From assembly GCA_000531095.1 (NCBI GenBank), contig HG799463.1, positions 708,132-772,131 of the forward strand: 64,000 bases of DNA. Reading direction: 5' to 3'. The notes beneath the pieces are model-generated. The model ran no database searches. It was not told the DNA's origin and saw nothing but the letters and a program-made list of their open reading frames with translations. Positions 9,453 to 16,345 of the stretch are shown here, in pieces (the first letter of the stretch is position 1; each line of letters starts with the position of its first letter). Origin of the DNA: Gemmata massiliana. GTDB lineage: Bacteria > Planctomycetota > Planctomycetia > Gemmatales > Gemmataceae. Both the position numbers and the translations under genes were made by a program.

Positions 9453-11039
9453 TTAGCGCAAAGCATCCAGGGCGGCTTTCAGTTTCGCGCCGGTGTCCGG
9501 GCGAACCATGTTCACGAACGCGATCTTGCCCGCGAGCCACTCGCGGAAGTTCTCGCGCCCCTCGCGGTTCTGGGCATCAAGCCCCTCGCTCTTGGCCCGG
9601 TGCAGGATCGCGCGGAGCCGGCGGATCTCGTCGCGGCTCACGGACGGCTTGTCGTTCACCACGACGCCCGTGACCACCTGCGCCGCGCTCCGGCGCATCA
9701 CGCGGGTCTTCTTCTCGTTGACCGCGAACCCTTCCTCGCGAGTGATGTTCCGCACCTTCGCGAGCAGCCAGCCGATCTTCCCCGCGAGGTCCGCGTTGCC
9801 GGAGAACGTGAGGTCGTCCGCGTACCGCGTGTAGGTGACGCCGAGTTTGGTCGCGACGCCGAGCAGCCGCTTATCGAGCTTGCGCGCGACCTGATTCGAC
9901 AGCCCGGGGCTTGTTGGCGCGCCTTGGGGCAGCCCGCGCGGGCCGGTCGCGGCCTCGTACTTCGTGCCCGCGTAGGTAACGGCCGCGCGCGGGCACTCGG
10001 TGCAAAGTAGCGCGAGAACCGTCGCGACACTGCCCGAGTAGCCGTAGCGCTCGTAGACCGCGCGCACGCGGAAGAACGCGATCGACGGGAAGAAATCCGA
10101 GAGATCGAGGTTCACCACGACGGCCTTGTTCACGTGCGGGTTCGCGTTGGTCACGATCCCGCGCCCGGCGACGAAGCCGTGGGCCGCTTCGGTTACCGGG
10201 AGCTTGTTGACGACGTTCTCGAGAATCCAGTGCTGTGCGGCCTTGAGCTTCTTGTGCGGGGCCGCAAGCGTGCGCATTCCGCCGGACTTCTTCGGCACCT
10301 GGAACTTGACGTAGTGCGTGCGGGTGGCCACCTCCGTGTGGAACCCGAGCCAGCGGAGTTGCTTGATTGTTAACCCGAGCGCCTTCGCGACGTCCGCGGG
10401 CGCGTGGAGCACGGGCAGCCCGAGCGCGGTGAGTTTCGCCTCGTCGCTCATGCGCAGGTGGAGCCGCCCCGATACCCCCCGCCCCAGGAAGATGATGTCC
10501 GTGGCCCGGCGGCGCCGAACGGCCTCCACGCGCTCCTTCTTGCGGACGGCGGATTCGGCCTTCTTGCGGGCCTTCTCGCGCTCTTTCGCTTCGCGGTACG
10601 CCTGGACCGCCGCGTTGCCCGCTAAGCCGGCCGCGGCCGCGATCCCCATCTCCGTCGGACGAACCTTCTCGTACTCCTCGCCGACGCGGTGGATCTCGTT
10701 GAGTTCTTCCGGCGAGAGCAGCCCGTGCGTGACGAGCGCGCGGTCGATGATCTCGGTCCGCGGGTCGCTGACGGGCGGGATGATGCTCTGGCGCCCGAAC
10801 TGGAACGCGGTCGCGAGCAGGCGCCCGTGCTTCTGGGCCGCATCCACGATCTCCTGCCGCGAGATGGGCAAGAACTCCGACGCGGAGTACGGGTCGGCGG
10901 GTGCTTCCGTTTGTGGTTCGGCTTTGGGTGCGGGTTGCTGCCCGCGCGGGTCGGGCGTCGGGGGAACAGAGGGCGGAGCACTTTCCGGGGTCGGAGTTGT
11001 GTCGCGCTTGCGCCGGAAGATCCAGTCGAACATGCTCAT
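9453..11039 (-). CDS. Retron-type reverse transcriptase
   Basis: A 528-residue reverse transcriptase. Residues 1-180 are a proline-rich then helical, charged extension not found in short retron RTs. The RT core follows: retron NAxxH (NANPH, 298-302), LDLSDFFPSI (311-320, motif A aspartates), QGAPTSP (372-378), the catalytic YADD (406-409), and VTG (456-458) after NEKKTR. NAxxH plus VTG is the signature separating retron RTs from group II intron or DGR enzymes. A structured element ends 51 nt upstream of the start, where a retron ncRNA is expected. It would reverse transcribe that RNA into branched msDNA. The neighbours upstream (membrane protein, SWIM, HEAT/ARM) are probable accessory genes. 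Confidence 0.93.
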   Translation of the reverse strand: MSMFDWIFRRKRDTTPTPESAPPSVPPTPDPRGQQPAPKAEPQTEAPADPYSASEFLPISRQEIVDAAQKHGRLLATAFQFGRQSIIPPVSDPRTEIIDRALVTHGLLSPEELNEIHRVGEEYEKVRPTEMGIAAAAGLAGNAAVQAYREAKEREKARKKAESAVRKKERVEAVRRRRATDIIFLGRGVSGRLHLRMSDEAKLTALGLPVLHAPADVAKALGLTIKQLRWLGFHTEVATRTHYVKFQVPKKSGGMRTLAAPHKKLKAAQHWILENVVNKLPVTEAAHGFVAGRGIVTNANPHVNKAVVVNLDLSDFFPSIAFFRVRAVYERYGYSGSVATVLALLCTECPRAAVTYAGTKYEAATGPRGLPQGAPTSPGLSNQVARKLDKRLLGVATKLGVTYTRYADDLTFSGNADLAGKIGWLLAKVRNITREEGFAVNEKKTRVMRRSAAQVVTGVVVNDKPSVSRDEIRRLRAILHRAKSEGLDAQNREGRENFREWLAGKIAFVNMVRPDTGAKLKAALDALR

Positions 11040-11090
11040 GGCAGCGCTCGCACGACGAACCCCGACCGCGCGGTCGGTGGGTAAAACAAG

Positions 11091-11293
11091 GCGACCGGCT
11101 CCGACTTCAATCGTGGACCAGATGCGTTCACCAACGCCCGGATATCCGCTCCCGGACCGGGGACGACGGTGGATTCAGCCCGGTCCGGGAGCGGATATCC
11201 GGGCGAAAAGAACAACGCACCTGGGAACGCAATCGCAAGCAACCGCACCCACGGCGGAGCGCCGCAGGATGTTTAAGTCTCGGAGCCGGTCGC
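11091..11293 (-). ncRNA. Retron msr-msd-like RNA, copy 1
   Basis: Read on the minus strand: a1 (11275-11293) pairs with a2 (11091-11107) by 14+3 bp around a bulged GA. A small hairpin with CTC loop spans 11251-11265. An 11-bp basal stem pairs 11214-11224 with 11118-11128, with one G-U pair. A perfect 27-bp stem pairs 11179-11205 with 11135-11161 around a 17-nt loop. The layout a1 - short hairpin - long hairpin - a2 - RT gene is that of a retron ncRNA. The flanking core is shared with copies 2 and 3, but the long stem is not. It lies directly upstream of the RT. Confidence 0.85.
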
Positions 11294-11348
11294 TTGACTC
11301 CAGTCAGTCTGTCGCTGTGTTGAATTGATGCGCGTAGCCTTTAGTTTG

Positions 11349-11405
11349 GTGGCACAGGCCTCTGGCCTGTGTAAGTTGCCTCCACAGGCCAGAGGCCTGT
11401 GCCAC
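11349..11405. repeat. Palindromic interspersed repeat (GGCACAGGCCTCTGGCCTGTG)
   Basis: Perfect 23-bp arms at 11349-11371 and 11383-11405 around an 11-nt loop. The same unit occurs at 53145-53200. The flanks also pair weakly (TGTGTTGAA near 11315, TTCAACACA near 11420). It lies between the small membrane protein gene and retron RNA copy 1 and could act as a terminator on either strand. Confidence 0.8.
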
Positions 11406-11488
11406 GAACACAAACACAAGTTTTCAACACAACACCAGTCTGTTAGGTGCCGAGCACTCTCGCCCGCACCACAATCATCCGAATCCAC

Positions 11489-11974
11489 TCAGCGCAACAT
11501 GTCGAACGCGGTTTCCAGCGGTTTGAAGCTGAAAGCGAGAATCCGCCAGTCGTTCGCCGGCCTGTAAAAGATCACGATGCACACCACGGCCCCGTGCGCG
11601 TGTTTCACCACGTAAGCGACGCGGACCAGTGAGGGACTGAGCACGGTTTCGCGACCGAACTCGAAATCCCCCGGCGCGCCGTACTCTTGCGCGAACTTCT
11701 GCCGCCACTCGATGATCCCTTGCCGGAGCCGACCGAACTGTTCGTCGTTGAGCGGATCAACGAACCCCGTGCGGAGCATATTGAAGAACTCTTCTTCCTG
11801 TCCTGTGCGGAGCTTGGTGACCAATTCATCGGCCCGCTCGCGCGTTTCGCTCGGTGCTGATTTCTCGCCCCCCGCGGGCTTCGTCGCCGACGGGAGCGTT
11901 CGCAACAGTGCGTACCCCCCGAACCCACCGAGCAGCCCCCCGAGCACGCCCGCGAACAGAACCGACTTCGTCAC
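11489..11974 (-). CDS. Small membrane-anchored protein of the retron locus
   Basis: A 161-residue protein starting at the GTG at 11972-11974, 16 nt after the SWIM gene stop, so the two are probably co-transcribed. Residues 3-25 (SVLFAGVLGGLLGGFGGYAL) form one glycine-rich transmembrane helix. The rest is a soluble alpha/beta domain with an acidic helical part (ERADELVTKLRTGQEEEFF). I recognise no family; the C-terminal half resembles small NTF2/DUF-type folds only loosely. Position between the SWIM gene and the RT suggests a part in the system, for example membrane targeting. That role is inference. Confidence 0.75.
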   Translation of the reverse strand: MTKSVLFAGVLGGLLGGFGGYALLRTLPSATKPAGGEKSAPSETRERADELVTKLRTGQEEEFFNMLRTGFVDPLNDEQFGRLRQGIIEWRQKFAQEYGAPGDFEFGRETVLSPSLVRVAYVVKHAHGAVVCIVIFYRPANDWRILAFSFKPLETAFDMLR

Positions 11975-11990
11975 CAGAGCGCCCCGTGAG

Positions 11991-13685
11991 TTAACTCGTG
12001 AACCGCTTGAACCAGCTATCGAGCGTGCCGCCGTCCGTGCCGATGTCGAGCGCCTTGTTGCGGAGCGCCTGGAGGTGCCGGCACGGCCCCTTCCGCAAGC
12101 CGCCCGTGTAGAAGTACGAACACGCGCACTTCCCCGCCACGATGCGATCGTCCGCGTCCAGCGTGACCTCCGACTCCGCGCGCCCGTCCACGGTGCCCAC
12201 AACACGGCGCTGGCCCTTCGCGTCCACGCTGTCGGACGTGACGCGGCACTTCCACCGGCTCAGGTCGCGTGCGGCCACTGTTTCTTCGTTTTCCGGGCCG
12301 ATGACCTCCGCCGAGAGCGTGACCGGCATCACCTGGCGCCACCGGTACACGCCGTGCGGCAGATCGTGAATCACCTGCCCCAGAAGCGCGAGCTTGTTCA
12401 ACCCGGCCGACACCGCCGGGGCCGATGCGCGCGTCTTGCTCACGAGCGCGTCGAGCGTCCACGTCGGCGATTGCTTGAACGCGGCCGCCATCGCGTTCAT
12501 GACTTCGGTCGAAGGGGCAACGGGCGGCGCGAGCTGATCGATCGCGCTGCCGCCGCTGGTCCAGTCGTTCGTGGTCCACCCCGAAAGGCCGAGCGTCAGT
12601 TTCATCTCGCCCATCTTCGCGACCCAGAAGCTGGGCAGGCCCGTTCCGAGCAGGTACACGTCCACGCCGTCGAGCAGCGGGAGGAGCCGCCCCAACACGC
12701 GGAGCCGGTCGCGGCCCCACGTGCGGATCACTTCCTTCCGCGGTCCGGGGTACGGCGTGTCGTGGAGCACGATCTCCTTGCTCCACGGTTCGAGCACGAT
12801 CTTCACCGGCGCCCCGGGCGTCAGCTCGAACCGAACCGCACGCGGCGACGCCTTCGCCTTGTGGCGCTTCAGGAACGCGACCAGCGCGTAGATCCCTTCG
12901 CGGCTCACGGGCACGCGGCGCATCGGCAAACTCATCGCCGATTGCAGCGCCGAGAACCCGCGCAGCCACGATTGCGGCAAATCAATCTTCTCTTCGCGGT
13001 ACCCCGCTTCGTCGGACGTTGTTTGGACCTCGAAGCCCATCGGGTCGATGGTGAATCGCGTTTCGCGGTAGCTCCGAATGGTCTGGAAGTGCTCGTAAAG
13101 GCGCCACGAATAATCGACGTTCGTGGTGCCGAGCGCTACATCGGTTTCAGCCTCGAACGCTTCGCGCTCGACCGTGAGGCACCCGTAGCTGCTCTCGTCC
13201 GCGCTGAAGCACTCGAAGAACATCACGTCCGGGCTAACGGTGATGACCGGGTCGCACGGCATCAGCATGCGCCACAATTCCGGGTCTTCGCGCGAGAGCA
13301 TCGTGCCGTACCGCGTGCGTGCCTCCCAGTACCGCTGTCGGCACCTCTGGAACTGCCGTTCCAGGTTGCGCGGCATCGGGCGCCCGCGCTCCTTCTCCAG
13401 TTCCGCGCGCGTGAGCTTCACGGCCTCGGTGCGGATGCGGGCCTCCTTCGCGGCTTCTTGCTTCTTCCACTCCTCGTAGCCGGTCTTGTCCTTCGGTTTG
13501 AAGCGCAAATCCGAAATGACCACGTCGTGAAGGGCCGACATCGCTTCGCGGAAGCGGAGCGGTTGCCGCAGCACGCCCACGAAGCTCACGCGGTCGCGGC
13601 GCAAGTTGGGCGCGAGCGACACCGCCAGGCCGGCGGGGGTCTGTGTGACGGTGCTCCGCCCGCGATACGCCGTGTTCAGCAGCAT
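11991..13685 (-). CDS. SWIM zinc finger protein (retron accessory)
   Basis: A 564-residue protein with a C-terminal SWIM zinc finger around residues 518-540: CACSYFYT...GPCRHLQAL gives CxC...CxH. SWIM domains bind nucleic acid or protein. The middle region (about 270-420) contains helical segments and may hold a winged-helix fold, since KTRASAPAVSAGLNKLALLGQVIHD looks like an HTH with a following wing. It precedes the membrane protein and RT genes on the same strand and follows two copies of the structured RNA. From memory, a published retron type pairs an RT with a WHSWIM protein and an ARM/HEAT protein; this gene fits that description. Confidence 0.85.
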   Translation of the reverse strand: MLLNTAYRGRSTVTQTPAGLAVSLAPNLRRDRVSFVGVLRQPLRFREAMSALHDVVISDLRFKPKDKTGYEEWKKQEAAKEARIRTEAVKLTRAELEKERGRPMPRNLERQFQRCRQRYWEARTRYGTMLSREDPELWRMLMPCDPVITVSPDVMFFECFSADESSYGCLTVEREAFEAETDVALGTTNVDYSWRLYEHFQTIRSYRETRFTIDPMGFEVQTTSDEAGYREEKIDLPQSWLRGFSALQSAMSLPMRRVPVSREGIYALVAFLKRHKAKASPRAVRFELTPGAPVKIVLEPWSKEIVLHDTPYPGPRKEVIRTWGRDRLRVLGRLLPLLDGVDVYLLGTGLPSFWVAKMGEMKLTLGLSGWTTNDWTSGGSAIDQLAPPVAPSTEVMNAMAAAFKQSPTWTLDALVSKTRASAPAVSAGLNKLALLGQVIHDLPHGVYRWRQVMPVTLSAEVIGPENEETVAARDLSRWKCRVTSDSVDAKGQRRVVGTVDGRAESEVTLDADDRIVAGKCACSYFYTGGLRKGPCRHLQALRNKALDIGTDGGTLDSWFKRFTS

Positions 13686-13730
13686 TCAGCGACCTCTCGC
13701 GCCCGCCAGTGGCAAGGCGCCTGGGAATCA

Positions 13731-13933
13731 TGGGCGGTGGAACCGACTTCTATCGTGGACCCGAGTCGTTCACGAACGCCGCCCGGGGGTACCCCTGGAC
13801 GGGAACGCAGGTTGATTCCGCCCGTCCAGGGGTACCCCCGGGCGGCGAAAAGAACAACGACACGGGGGACGCAATCGCTAGCAACCGCACCCGCGGCGGA
13901 GCGCCGCAGAGAAGGTCTCGGACCCACCACCCA
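13731..13933 (-). ncRNA. Retron msr-msd-like RNA, copy 2
   Basis: Same architecture and same length (203 bp) as copy 1. The outer stem pairs 13914-13933 with about 13731-13747, using U-G and G-U pairs that form only in minus-strand RNA. The msr-like hairpin (GCGGCG, CTC loop) is at 13893-13907. The 11-bp basal stem pairs 13856-13866 with 13760-13770; its sequence differs from copy 1 on both arms, so pairing is kept with one mismatch. The long stem is a perfect 27 bp (13777-13803 with 13821-13847) around a 17-nt loop. It ends 45 nt before the SWIM gene start. Confidence 0.82.
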
Positions 13934-13939
13934 AGTTTT

Positions 13940-13969
13940 GGCGAACGGCCAGCGTAAGCTGGCTGGTGA
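13940..13969. repeat. REP-like palindromic unit, inverted copy
   Basis: A 30-bp partly palindromic unit (GGCGAACGGCCAGCGTAAGC then TGGCTGGTGA). It is the reverse complement of units at 9371-9401 and 14064-14094. The copies flank the RNA elements of the retron locus. Confidence 0.65.
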
Positions 13970-14063
13970 GGGCTCGCACAACTGCGTTGGCACGAGGCTC
14001 CAGTTTGTGCCACCAAACGCACCGCCCCACCACAGCGAGTTAGCGTCTCAACCCCTCGCTACT

Positions 14064-14094
14064 TTCACCAGCCGGCTCACGCCGGCCGTTCGCC
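14064..14094. repeat. REP-like palindromic unit, direct copy
   Basis: TTCACCAGCCGGCTCACGCC then GGCCGTTCGCC, nearly identical to 9371-9401 and inverted relative to 13940-13969. It sits 9 bp outside RNA copy 3. Together with the inverted copy it frames the gap between copies 2 and 3. Confidence 0.65.
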
Positions 14095-14102
14095 TTGTAT
14101 TG

Positions 14103-14314
14103 CGGTGTCCGCCGCAACCGACTTCAATCGTGGACCAGATGCGTTCACGACGCCCGCCCCGGACCGGTCGGGCCGAGGACTCGGGTCGATTCAGTTCGGC
14201 CCGACCGGTCCGGGGCGGGCGAACAAGAACAACGCACCTGGGGACGCAATCGCGAGCAACGTCAACCGCGACGGAACATCGCAGCATGGTGGTCTCGGAT
14301 CGCGACGGACACCG
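14103..14314 (-). ncRNA. Retron msr-msd-like RNA, copy 3
   Basis: A 212-bp third copy. The outer stem (right arm about 14293-14314 with left arm 14103-14123) gives 18 or more pairs including U-G and G-U wobbles on the minus strand, with a sequence unlike copies 1 and 2. The msr-like hairpin at 14268-14282 reads GCGAUG-UUC-CGUCGC, changed on both arms relative to GCGGCG-CUC-CGCCGC yet still paired. The basal stem (14231-14241 with 14135-14145) equals copy 1. The long stem has 26 perfect pairs plus one G-T (14151-14177 with 14195-14221) and a 17-nt loop. A terminator hairpin separates it from the HEAT/ARM gene. Confidence 0.82.
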
Positions 14315-14355: not shown

Positions 14356-16119
14356 TCAGTTCCACTGTAACTCCGGGAAGACCGCTTCCACGAGCGGCTT
14401 CCGCGTCGGGTTCTTCGCAACGAAGCCCGCAACACCGGCCAACCCCGCGCGGAACTCCGGCCCGCGTACCGAGCGCAGCGCGACCGCAACCATCGGGAGC
14501 AGGTCGCCGGCCTCGTCCGGGTGGTCCGTGAGGCGGTCGATGATTTGCCGCATCACGAACGGCTTCGCGCGGCTCCCGCGATGAATGTTCAGGAGCACCG
14601 TGGCCCACAGAAACCGCACGCGCTCCGGAGAGAACTTCGTCAGCCCCGTCGGTTCCTTGGCCCGGTCCTCCAGCATTCCGACCAACCGCAACCGAATATT
14701 GTCGTAAGGCGACTCCAGGAGCCGCTGCCACACCAGGATCGCGTCGCGCGCACGCGGCTCGGTCTGGAGCCACTCCCAGCCGACCTCGCGCACCTCCTCG
14801 AAGCGGCTGTCGAGGAACTCCAGCACCCACAACGGGTCGAAGTCCGTTCGCTCGCTCAGCACCTCGCACGCCCACTTCACAAGATCGACGCGGAGCGGCT
14901 CGGCCTCGGCGTTCCGCAAGTTGAACACCGCGGTCAGTTCTTCCGGCGAACGCGGTTTCTTTCCTTTGAGGAACGCGAACCCCAGACGCGCGAGCGGAAC
15001 CGGGCGCTGCATCGCGAGCCGCACCGCGGACGCGAACGTGACCAACTCCGGCTTCACGTTCCGCTCGACCATCGCACAGATCCGGTCGAGCAGGTCCGTG
15101 CGCACCTCGTCCGTGATGCGCAACCACTGCTCGATGCTAACCTCTTCCAGCCCGCGCGCTTCGAGCAACTCCATCGCGAGTTCATTCAGCGCGGTGTTGG
15201 GCGCGGTCACCCAGGCGAGGATCTCATCGAGCGTGAGCTGCGCGAGCCGGTCCGGGAAGTGTCGGCGGAGCATCTGCACCGCCCACGTCGCGACCACCCG
15301 GCACTTCGCGGTCACGAGCAGGTCGAAAATCGGCTCCGGGCTGCGCAACCACAATTTGCGGAACATCGGGTCCGGTTGCAACCGCGCGAGCGTTCCCCCG
15401 TCCGCGACGCGCCACCCCGCCGGCTTCGAGACGATCGTGGGCGAGTAGTGGAACAGGACGTGGACCAGTCCCCAGTTGTCGAGCAGCGCGAGACCGTCGG
15501 GCACGTCCGCGTCGGTGTAGAGCTTCAGCGCCGCGCAGACCGCCGGGATGTAGCGCGCCGGCTCCTTGCGCCCGAGCTTGCGGAAGTAGCGCCACGCCCG
15601 CCGGCGCAAGTAGGTCCGCGTGGCCACCGAGAACAGGAACTTGCCCCGCGTGAACTGTTCGCGGTTCTGGCTGAACCACGGCCCCGAGTACGAGCGGTCG
15701 TCGCGCGAGAGTGTGGTGTCACCGGGGGTCGAAACGGACTCGTAAGACTCGTAGGAACGCGAACGATAGTTGTACTTCTGCTTCGTCGCGCGCCGGCGCC
15801 GGATGGTGCGATCGAACCCGACGAGGAACCGCGCCATCACCGCGTCGTCGCCGGTCGTGTCCGCGAACTTGAACAGCCGCTTGACGAGCGGTTCGTGCCG
15901 AGGGGAGTTGAACGGGAGGTCCAGGTAACTGAAGAGTAACCGCTTGGCTTCGATCCGCGGGTCCGTCCACCACGTCTCGGCGAACGTGGCCAGTGCGGGA
16001 GCGTTCGTGCGCTGGCGGATCGCCTCCACGAATTCCGGCACGCCCGACTGGAACAGCCGCACGGTGCGGTCCCAATCGGGGCCGTTTCCGGCGGGCGGGG
16101 GTTTGCGGTCACGGGCCAT
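14356..16119 (-). CDS. HEAT/ARM-like alpha-helical protein (retron accessory)
   Basis: A 587-residue, almost wholly helical protein. I chose the ATG at 16117-16119 because GGAAG lies at 16125-16129; the frame stays open upstream without protein-like sequence. Repeated helix pairs in the C-terminal 350 residues (for example WACEVLSERTDFDPLWVLEF and IRLRLVGMLEDRAKEP) resemble HEAT/ARM repeats. A basic, tyrosine-rich segment (RRRRATKQKYNYRSRSYESY) lies near residue 115. It is upstream of RNA copies 2 and 3 and of the SWIM gene on the same strand. An effector or scaffold role in the retron-like system is inferred; no catalytic motif is visible. Confidence 0.75.
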   Translation of the reverse strand: MARDRKPPPAGNGPDWDRTVRLFQSGVPEFVEAIRQRTNAPALATFAETWWTDPRIEAKRLLFSYLDLPFNSPRHEPLVKRLFKFADTTGDDAVMARFLVGFDRTIRRRRATKQKYNYRSRSYESYESVSTPGDTTLSRDDRSYSGPWFSQNREQFTRGKFLFSVATRTYLRRRAWRYFRKLGRKEPARYIPAVCAALKLYTDADVPDGLALLDNWGLVHVLFHYSPTIVSKPAGWRVADGGTLARLQPDPMFRKLWLRSPEPIFDLLVTAKCRVVATWAVQMLRRHFPDRLAQLTLDEILAWVTAPNTALNELAMELLEARGLEEVSIEQWLRITDEVRTDLLDRICAMVERNVKPELVTFASAVRLAMQRPVPLARLGFAFLKGKKPRSPEELTAVFNLRNAEAEPLRVDLVKWACEVLSERTDFDPLWVLEFLDSRFEEVREVGWEWLQTEPRARDAILVWQRLLESPYDNIRLRLVGMLEDRAKEPTGLTKFSPERVRFLWATVLLNIHRGSRAKPFVMRQIIDRLTDHPDEAGDLLPMVAVALRSVRGPEFRAGLAGVAGFVAKNPTRKPLVEAVFPELQWN

Positions 16120-16345
16120 CGTCACTTCCCGAGTGTGGTGAAGAGGATGGTATGCGGTGCCCGCGCCGGGTGCAAGCGCGGTAGTCGCCCGAACCGGGCA
16201 CCGCGGTTCGTCGGGGCTACGATCTTTCGCTGGCGAGACAGAAACACTCCAACAAATAAGCGGCCAGAACGCCAGCAAGTTCCCCAAAGCTCCGCCTTAC
16301 CAAAACTCGGTCCGCGGTGTGAAGCGGTCGCCCTAAAATGGTCTC

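What the first reader, a model, noticed from the sequence alone, without database searches (positions are those of the whole stretch)
11091..14314. Hypervariable 27-bp stems of constant geometry
In all three copies the long hairpin has 27 pairs (26 plus one G-T in copy 3) and a 17-nt loop. Apart from the shared CGCC at the base, the stem sequences are unrelated, yet pairing is perfect. The loop keeps the pattern GATTC (plus strand). The flanking bases are conserved. So length and pairing are held fixed while sequence changes freely, as if the stem were a ruler, a double-stranded msDNA reporter, or a decoy against nucleases or phage proteins that select for diversity.
Basis: seen in the sequence. 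Interest (0 to 1): 0.9.

Follow-up and report, generated by a model that had tools for sequence, protein, structure and literature searches.

The report
Retron with hypervariable, fixed-length DNA stems
A planctomycete retron, probably an anti-phage system, carries three template RNAs whose long hairpins keep the same length and near-perfect pairing while their sequence can be replaced wholesale between close relatives, and its partner protein is predicted to have the ring-clamp fold that grips DNA without reading sequence.

Summary
Observation confirmed. The three hairpins are the msd stems of three msr-msd RNA genes of a type XIII retron (HEAT, SWIM and RT genes, minus strand) in a Gemmata-like planctomycete. 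In all 31 fitted 71-nt hairpins (29 distinct), 96.4% of pair cells pair and 26 of 27 pairs change on both sides. Change is not only gradual: at copy C, the window and relative G008 differ at 2 of 136 flanking bases and 1 of 17 loop bases, but at 15 of 22 stem positions on each arm; at copy B they are identical. No source of new stems was found in 19 genus genomes or, for three exact 19-20-mers, in IMG/VR. Length is a clade-specific constant (69-72 nt in 32 Gemmata-clade copies). Strong hypervariability is mainly Gemmata-clade. The SWIM protein's predicted structure matches PCNA sliding clamps (Z 21). I propose that sequence-blind partners fix length and pairing while the sequence is a diversifying bait for phage enzymes; the clamp is a prediction, the bait an inference. 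Type XIII retrons are known; I found this multi-stem, switching form and the clamp fold undescribed in the searchable library.

The parts
9453..11039 (-). Retron reverse transcriptase (528 aa), PADLOC RT_XIII; YADD, NAxxH-like and VTG motifs seen in the translation
   Evidence: PADLOC RT_XIII E 2.9e-156; Pfam RVT_1; nearest solved sequence retron Ec86 RT E 1.3e-42; motifs read from the translation, motif names recalled
11087..11293 (-). ncRNA copy A (a1, msr hairpins, msd, a2; ends approximate), between the SWIM and RT genes
   Evidence: homology of flanks, alignment A4 and consensus fold, single-sequence fold
11135..11205 (-). msd hairpin A: 27 bp perfect, 17-nt loop
11991..13685 (-). SWIM_XIII protein (564 aa): predicted PCNA-like clamp (residues about 34-371), winged-helix-like region, C-terminal SWIM zinc finger
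   Evidence: PADLOC SWIM_XIII E 3.8e-182; AF2 model; PCNA by Foldseek and VIA-align Z 21.0; Pfam SWIM in 7 of 35 and DprA_WH in 4 of 35 homologues at E up to 0.1
13729..13935 (-). ncRNA copy B (ends approximate), between the HEAT and SWIM genes
13777..13847 (-). msd hairpin B: 27 bp perfect, 17-nt loop; identical in relative G008 (L041:5839-5909)
14103..14309 (-). ncRNA copy C (ends approximate), just downstream of the HEAT gene
14151..14221 (-). msd hairpin C: 26 bp perfect plus one A-C (G-T in the DNA copy), 17-nt loop; identical in G012 (L037:5499-5569), stem replaced in G008
14356..16119 (-). HEAT-ARM_XIII protein (587 aa from the internal ATG at 16119; the ORF opens at 16287)
   Evidence: PADLOC HEAT-ARM_XIII E 1.1e-176; start read; mostly alpha AF2 model, pLDDT 89.9, made with one extra leading residue; HEAT/ARM-type Foldseek matches

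Best explanation
The locus is a type XIII retron: HEAT gene, ncRNA C, ncRNA B, SWIM gene, a small unknown ORF, ncRNA A and RT in transcription order. Each ncRNA should give an msDNA whose DNA duplex is the 27-bp stem. Length and pairing stay fixed because protein partners hold the duplex by its backbone over a set length without reading it; the PCNA-like clamp of the SWIM protein is the likeliest such partner. Freed from sequence recognition, the stem serves as a bait, and in the Gemmata clade it turns over by abrupt replacement of both arms, giving a cell two or three different baits for phage enzymes that modify, cut or bind DNA; a damaged or modified bait would release the effector. Shown: retron proteins and ncRNA anatomy, covariation, abrupt replacement. 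Predicted: clamp fold. Inferred: msDNA synthesis, clamp on stem, bait function, effector release.
For: Type XIII proteins. An exact flank pattern finds three places in the genome, all here. Covariation. Abrupt replacement faster than synonymous change (4-fold sites differ by 9-19% between window and G008; 15 of 22 stem positions per arm at copy C). In the Gemmata clade 9 of 11 pairs with flanks at least 95% identical have stems at most 55% identical (shuffled stems average 0.37). Clamp fold: PCNA Z 21.0, rmsd 2.9 over 232 residues. Invariant arginines R46, R242, R327, R333 fall in modelled helices 42-57, 238-251 and 326-333, which I take to line the clamp bore (inference). Other retrons are triggered by phage methyltransferases acting on the RT-DNA (PMC12548924, passages; PMC13158370, part 1 of 2 read).
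Against: No msDNA, phage or binding experiment. Outside the Gemmata clade 0 of 10 pairs with flanks at least 95% identical have stems at most 55% identical and 9 of 10 have stems at least 80% identical (6 of the 10 are one Polyangium quartet), so diversification is not shown to be a general type XIII property. Palindromes, a possible sign of enzyme sites, are enriched only in CGCC-type (Gemmata-clade) stems (8-mers in 13 of 27 against 4.0 expected; 5 of 14 against 1.4 when made non-redundant) and not in 50 non-redundant stems (5 against 5.2). 55 of 73 loci with a fitted copy show one copy only, some cut by contig ends. Several stems carry mismatches, for example in L077, L040 and L075. A clamp fold, known here only from a model of pLDDT 77.5, does not prove DNA encirclement.
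Confidence: 0.45

Rival explanations
1. Structure-only constraint with a special mutational process and no selection for diversity. The stem matters only as a duplex; new arm sequences arise by template switching or arm-to-arm correction during replication, so both arms change together and any sequence of the right length survives.
For: Pairing nearly perfect whatever the sequence. Partly replaced stems exist: the two copies in L087 differ mainly in a short mid-stem block on both arms, the two in L107 by one compensatory pair. Mismatched stems exist. No donor for window stem A or G008 stem C in 19 genomes; window C is found otherwise only in G012, plus 2-mismatch hits in G014 and G016.
Against: It does not by itself explain why the clearest turnover lies in the Gemmata clade or why loci there hold two or three copies with different stems. 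Neutral point substitution alone is excluded at copy C (15 of 22 against a synonymous difference of at most 0.19 per site, P about 7e-7).
Confidence: 0.35
2. Stems are captured from invaders, a spacer-like memory.
For: Near-fixed length, private sequences, conserved flanks.
Against: Exact 19-20-mers of all three window stems are absent from IMG/VR; only exact matches were sought. In the own genome stem A has no other match at up to 3 mismatches, stem B two 3-mismatch hits, stem C none at up to 2. Some stems persist across species (GGTCGAATTCG type in L037, L040, L075).
Confidence: 0.04
3. Stems are drawn from a shared pool by recombination between ncRNA positions and strains, maintained like immune alleles.
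For: Window B equals G008 B and window C equals G012 C while the other copies differ. L040's copy with a class C a1/a2 has a stem and lower flank like window B. L037 A and B share loop and near flanks but not stems.
Against: At copy C the 17-nt loop between the arms is nearly retained (1 change) when both arms change, which simple tract exchange does not give, and no donor for G008 stem C is found in 19 genomes.
Confidence: 0.12
4. Transposon end, REP-type repeat or terminator.
For: REP-like palindromes do lie nearby (11349-11405).
Against: An exact flank pattern occurs only at this locus in the genome; copies keep a retron ncRNA anatomy with position-specific a1/a2 and lie beside type XIII genes in several phyla.
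Confidence: 0.01

Closest known systems
Type XIII retrons (RT, SWIM, HEAT-ARM/WGR; PADLOC-DB models)
   Same: RT, SWIM and HEAT-ARM proteins match the type XIII models
   Different: Two or three ncRNA genes per locus with different, switching stems; PCNA-like fold of the SWIM protein. I found neither described; the type-defining paper (Mestre 2020, recalled) is not held
Retron-Eco1 (Ec86)
   Same: Nearest solved RT; msd stem-loop contacts the effector and is modified by a phage Dcm-like methyltransferase (PMC13158370, part 1 of 2)
   Different: Different effectors; one ncRNA and no such punctuated stem replacement that I know of (recalled)
Retron-Asa1 and Retron-Squ1
   Same: Model for bait reading: a phage N6-adenine methyltransferase triggers them (for Asa1 a glycosidase contributes too), GATC present in their ncRNAs (PMC12548924, passages)
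   Different: Their type and ncRNA number were not looked up; no stem switching seen in the passages
PCNA sliding clamps
   Same: Predicted fold of SWIM residues about 34-371, Z 21.0
   Different: 6-15% sequence identity in the listed rows, helical insertion, added winged-helix-like region and SWIM finger; ring formation untested
Diversity-generating retroelements
   Same: RT-linked sequence diversity
   Different: Here the template RNA itself varies; no variable protein repeat was looked for; the observed changes involve all four bases

Membership tests
Retron | Retron-type RT | tested here: met
   PADLOC RT_XIII, Ec86 RT E 1.3e-42
Retron | ncRNA with paired a1/a2 ends, msr hairpin(s) and a long msd hairpin | tested here: met
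   Consensus fold of 32 sequences and single folds of the three copies: a1/a2 closes each; one msr hairpin in all, a second in the folds of A and B
Retron | Priming guanosine next to a1 | tested here: inconclusive
   CGAGAC after a1 holds invariant G13 and G15; the AGC context of PMC6868368 is not seen there and no priming data exist
Retron | 2'-5' branched msDNA is made | not testable with these tools
   needs extraction and sequencing
Type XIII retron | RT_XIII with SWIM and HEAT/ARM or WGR genes | tested here: met
   E 2.9e-156, 3.8e-182, 1.1e-176; in the 80 loci kept (best 80 of 344), tblastn found HEAT homologues in 73 and RT homologues in 65
PCNA sliding clamp (fold) | Two-domain clamp fold of about 240 residues | tested here: met
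   Predicted model only, pLDDT 77.5: Foldseek E 1.6e-09, VIA-align Z 21.0, 232 residues, rmsd 2.9
PCNA sliding clamp (function) | Closed ring around DNA | not tested
   no oligomer model or experiment
Diversity-generating retroelement | Template repeat and variable repeat in a protein gene | not tested
   no TR/VR search was made; the variable element here is the ncRNA
Transposon end / dispersed repeat | Copies dispersed in the genome | tested here: not met
   exact pattern of the conserved flank found 3 times in 9.27 Mb, all at this locus; more diverged copies would be missed

The most novel reading that the evidence does not exclude
A bacterial immune sensor repertoire made of DNA: one RT serves two or three template RNAs whose duplex stems are interchangeable, sequence-private baits of fixed length, held without regard to sequence by a PCNA-like clamp; new baits arise by a process that rewrites both arms at once and spares the loop.
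Probability: 0.3. Interest if true: 0.88.

Novelty: new variant of a known kind. Interest (0 to 1): 0.74.

Why it matters
[quoted passage not shown] These loci are natural experiments, with near-identical proteins and flanks but swapped stems, two or three per locus in much of the Gemmata clade, and make the question directly testable. A sliding-clamp fold in a retron partner protein would give a simple reason for fixed length with free sequence.

Tried and rejected
Rfam at gathering thresholds: 0 matches in the window.

Palindrome or operator-like stems: a first test on 31 distinct stems looked strong (mean z 1.1), but on 50 non-redundant stems dyad symmetry is weak (Z 2.1-2.3 against shuffles, 3.8 against column shuffles), and 6- and 8-bp palindromes are enriched only in CGCC-type stems (6-mers not once these are made non-redundant), 4-mers in no set. 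I do not build on it. An A at stem position 14 (22 of 50, nominal P 4e-7; position picked after looking) is unexplained.

Spacer-like capture: no exact IMG/VR match for three 19-20-mers; no donor in own genome or genus apart from the weak hits named above.

Second type XIII-like locus of the genus (L052-L066): no matching ncRNA was found there by the flank models; in several of the 13 loci aligned, the gap between SWIM and the next gene holds a repeat-like stretch.

Rows dropped: 6 of 101 flank hits gave no fitted hairpin; 11 of 95 fitted copies were left out of the identity analysis for length outside 64-76 or weak pairing, and the register of L040:8236 was set by hand there. The first pair count used 24 of the 31 71-nt hairpins (97.2%, 24 of 27 pairs); I repeated it on all 31 (96.4%, 26 of 27) and quote that. 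A spurious row (L068) remains in the 95 copies and the 73 loci. The consensus fold used 32 of 83 ncRNAs. Pairs share sequences and are not independent. 'Gemmata clade' is my label for 17 loci (window, L037, L040-L042, L075-L086), SWIM at least 76% identical to the window's where compared.

Not held or not found: Mestre 2020; no paper with retron, type XIII and SWIM; none of five papers listed for several ncRNAs holds the word retron; the one listed paper with a 'retron' hit in the clamp search is on haematopoietic cells (listing).
Full report
WHAT IS THERE. The three hairpins are real and as described. They lie among three minus-strand genes: a HEAT-ARM protein (14356-16119, start read), a SWIM protein (11991-13685) and a reverse transcriptase (9453-11039). 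PADLOC models place all three in type XIII retrons: RT_XIII E 2.9e-156, SWIM_XIII 3.8e-182, HEAT-ARM_XIII 1.1e-176. The nearest solved RT is that of retron Ec86 (E 1.3e-42). Rfam gives nothing at its thresholds. An exact pattern of the conserved flank occurs three times in the 9.27-Mb genome, all here. That the host is Gemmata-like is inferred from the record titles of the nearest relatives.

ANATOMY OF THE RNA. Each copy folds as a retron ncRNA: a1, a strong msr hairpin (a second one in the folds of A and B), a lower msd stem, the long hairpin, and a2 pairing with a1. The a1/a2 arms differ between copies A, B and C but are recognisable at each position across species, so copies can be matched between genomes. 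The same anatomy was found beside SWIM_XIII genes in Planctomycetota, Verrucomicrobiota, Myxococcota and others, among the best 80 of 344 relatives. In these 80 loci tblastn found HEAT homologues in 73 and RT homologues in 65. Of 73 loci with a fitted copy, 55 have one, 14 two and 4 three (some contigs end early, and one locus, L068, is spurious).

LENGTH AND PAIRING. On all 31 fitted 71-nt hairpins (29 distinct), 96.4% of cells pair, 26 of 27 pairs change on both sides and one never varies; the covariation score is 1.013 against 0.195 in shuffles and at most 0.193 in slid registers. Total length is 71 nt in 23, 72 in 7 and 69 in 2 of 32 Gemmata-clade copies and 66-74 nt in 86 of 95 copies overall, with other common lengths in other clades. 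So the ruler is real but clade-specific.

THE STEM IS REPLACED, NOT ONLY DRIFTED. In the Gemmata clade, of 11 pairs of copies with flanks at least 95% identical, 9 have stems at most 55% identical and 2 at least 80%; shuffled stems average 0.37. The clearest case is copy C in the window and in relative G008 (L041): 1 of 88 and 1 of 48 flanking bases differ, 1 of 17 loop bases differs, and 15 of 22 stem positions differ on each arm, all of these still paired. Their genes differ at 9-19% of four-fold sites, so neutral point change is too slow (P about 7e-7 at 0.19 per site). In the same two genomes copy B is identical. G012 (L037) shares stem C with the window but differs at 11 of 22 positions in B and 14 of 22 in A (5' arm). 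Change is therefore abrupt and copy by copy.

LIMITS OF THAT PATTERN. Outside the Gemmata clade, of 10 pairs with flanks at least 95% identical, none has a stem at most 55% identical and 9 are at least 80%, though six of the ten are one Polyangium quartet. Other pairs there do show turnover: L106 (flank 0.93, stem 0.33), L117/L122 (0.92, 0.50) and L087 (0.97, 0.64). The two copies in L107 differ by a single compensatory pair. Some stems persist between species with paired change, as the GGTCGAATTCG type in L037, L040 and L075. So gradual compensation and abrupt replacement both occur.

SOURCE OF NEW STEMS. Window stem A and G008 stem C occur in no other of 19 genus genomes at up to 2 mismatches; window C occurs otherwise only in G012, apart from 2-mismatch hits in G014 and G016. 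In the own genome stem A has no other match at up to 3 mismatches and stem B two 3-mismatch hits. Exact 19-20-mers of the three stems are absent from IMG/VR. L037 copies A and B share loop and near flanks but not stems, and L040 carries a B-like stem within a class C a1/a2, so modules also seem to move between positions.

A CLAMP FOLD IN THE PARTNER PROTEIN. The SWIM protein has no Pfam match by itself. An AlphaFold2 model from 35 sequences (pLDDT 77.5, pTM 0.75) matches sliding clamps (PCNA, 9-1-1, a viral clamp) in all 50 listed Foldseek rows, of 484 with E up to 0.001 (best E 1.6e-09). VIA-align gives PCNA Z 21.0, rmsd 2.9 over 232 residues, model residues 35-371. Homologues show SWIM (7 of 35) and winged-helix (DprA_WH, 4 of 35) similarity at E up to 0.1, and the C520, C522, C535, H537 set is invariant. 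Invariant R46, R242, R327 and R333 fall in helices that I take to line the bore (inference). The HEAT protein is a mostly alpha solenoid by prediction.

HOW IT MOST LIKELY WORKS. Sliding clamps hold duplex DNA without reading it (established knowledge). A clamp-like partner on the msDNA stem would demand a duplex of set length and nothing of its sequence, which is what the alignments show. Other retrons are set off when phage proteins act on the RT-DNA: a Dcm-like methyltransferase for Ec86 and SSB for Eco8 (PMC13158370, part 1 of 2 read), an N6-adenine methyltransferase with GATC in the ncRNA for Asa1 and Squ1 (PMC12548924, passages). A stem free to vary can be diversified as bait, and several copies give several baits. 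The bait step and the clamp-on-stem step are inference; retron proteins and RNA anatomy, covariation and abrupt replacement are shown.

COMPARISON WITH WHAT IS KNOWN. That msr-msd cassettes diverge in sequence but share structure is known (PMC6868368, passages, which also says msd stems of about 10-50 bp generally contain mismatches or wobbles). New here, within the searches made, are the multiple ncRNAs per locus with private stems, the abrupt both-arm replacement, and the clamp fold. Most subscription papers are not held, so this is a statement about the library, not about all print.

WHAT I WOULD NOT CLAIM. Operator-like or palindromic stems: weak and mostly in one clade. Universality of hypervariability: not supported. 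Membership of PCNA by function: untested.

Noticed in passing
window 11489-11980 (-): 163-aa ORF with a hydrophobic N-terminus between the SWIM gene and ncRNA A; no family match.
   Followed up: partly
window 11349-11405 and 13940-14094: REP-like palindrome GTGGCACAGGCC... (a similar unit is in L048/L076) and a 30-nt inverted repeat between ncRNAs B and C; perhaps dispersed repeats, not searched for.
   Followed up: no
G000:C8:188623-191838 (L013, L002, L052): Second type XIII-like locus in the same genome: SWIM_XIII E 5.5e-187 and an RT 44% identical, with counterparts in other same-genus genomes, but no matching ncRNA found by the flank models.
   Followed up: partly
L003 (G000:C5:117512-118483) and L004 (G000:C2:1112753-1113523): Two further RT genes similar to the retron RT (42% and 35%) in the genome.
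   Followed up: no
type XIII stems, position 14 of 27: A is over-represented near the stem centre (22 of 50 non-redundant stems), often as TA at 13-14 (12 of 50); reason unknown.
   Followed up: partly
control genome: The SWIM_XIII model also rings in Methanosarcina acetivorans, so the clamp-SWIM protein may reach Archaea.
   Followed up: no
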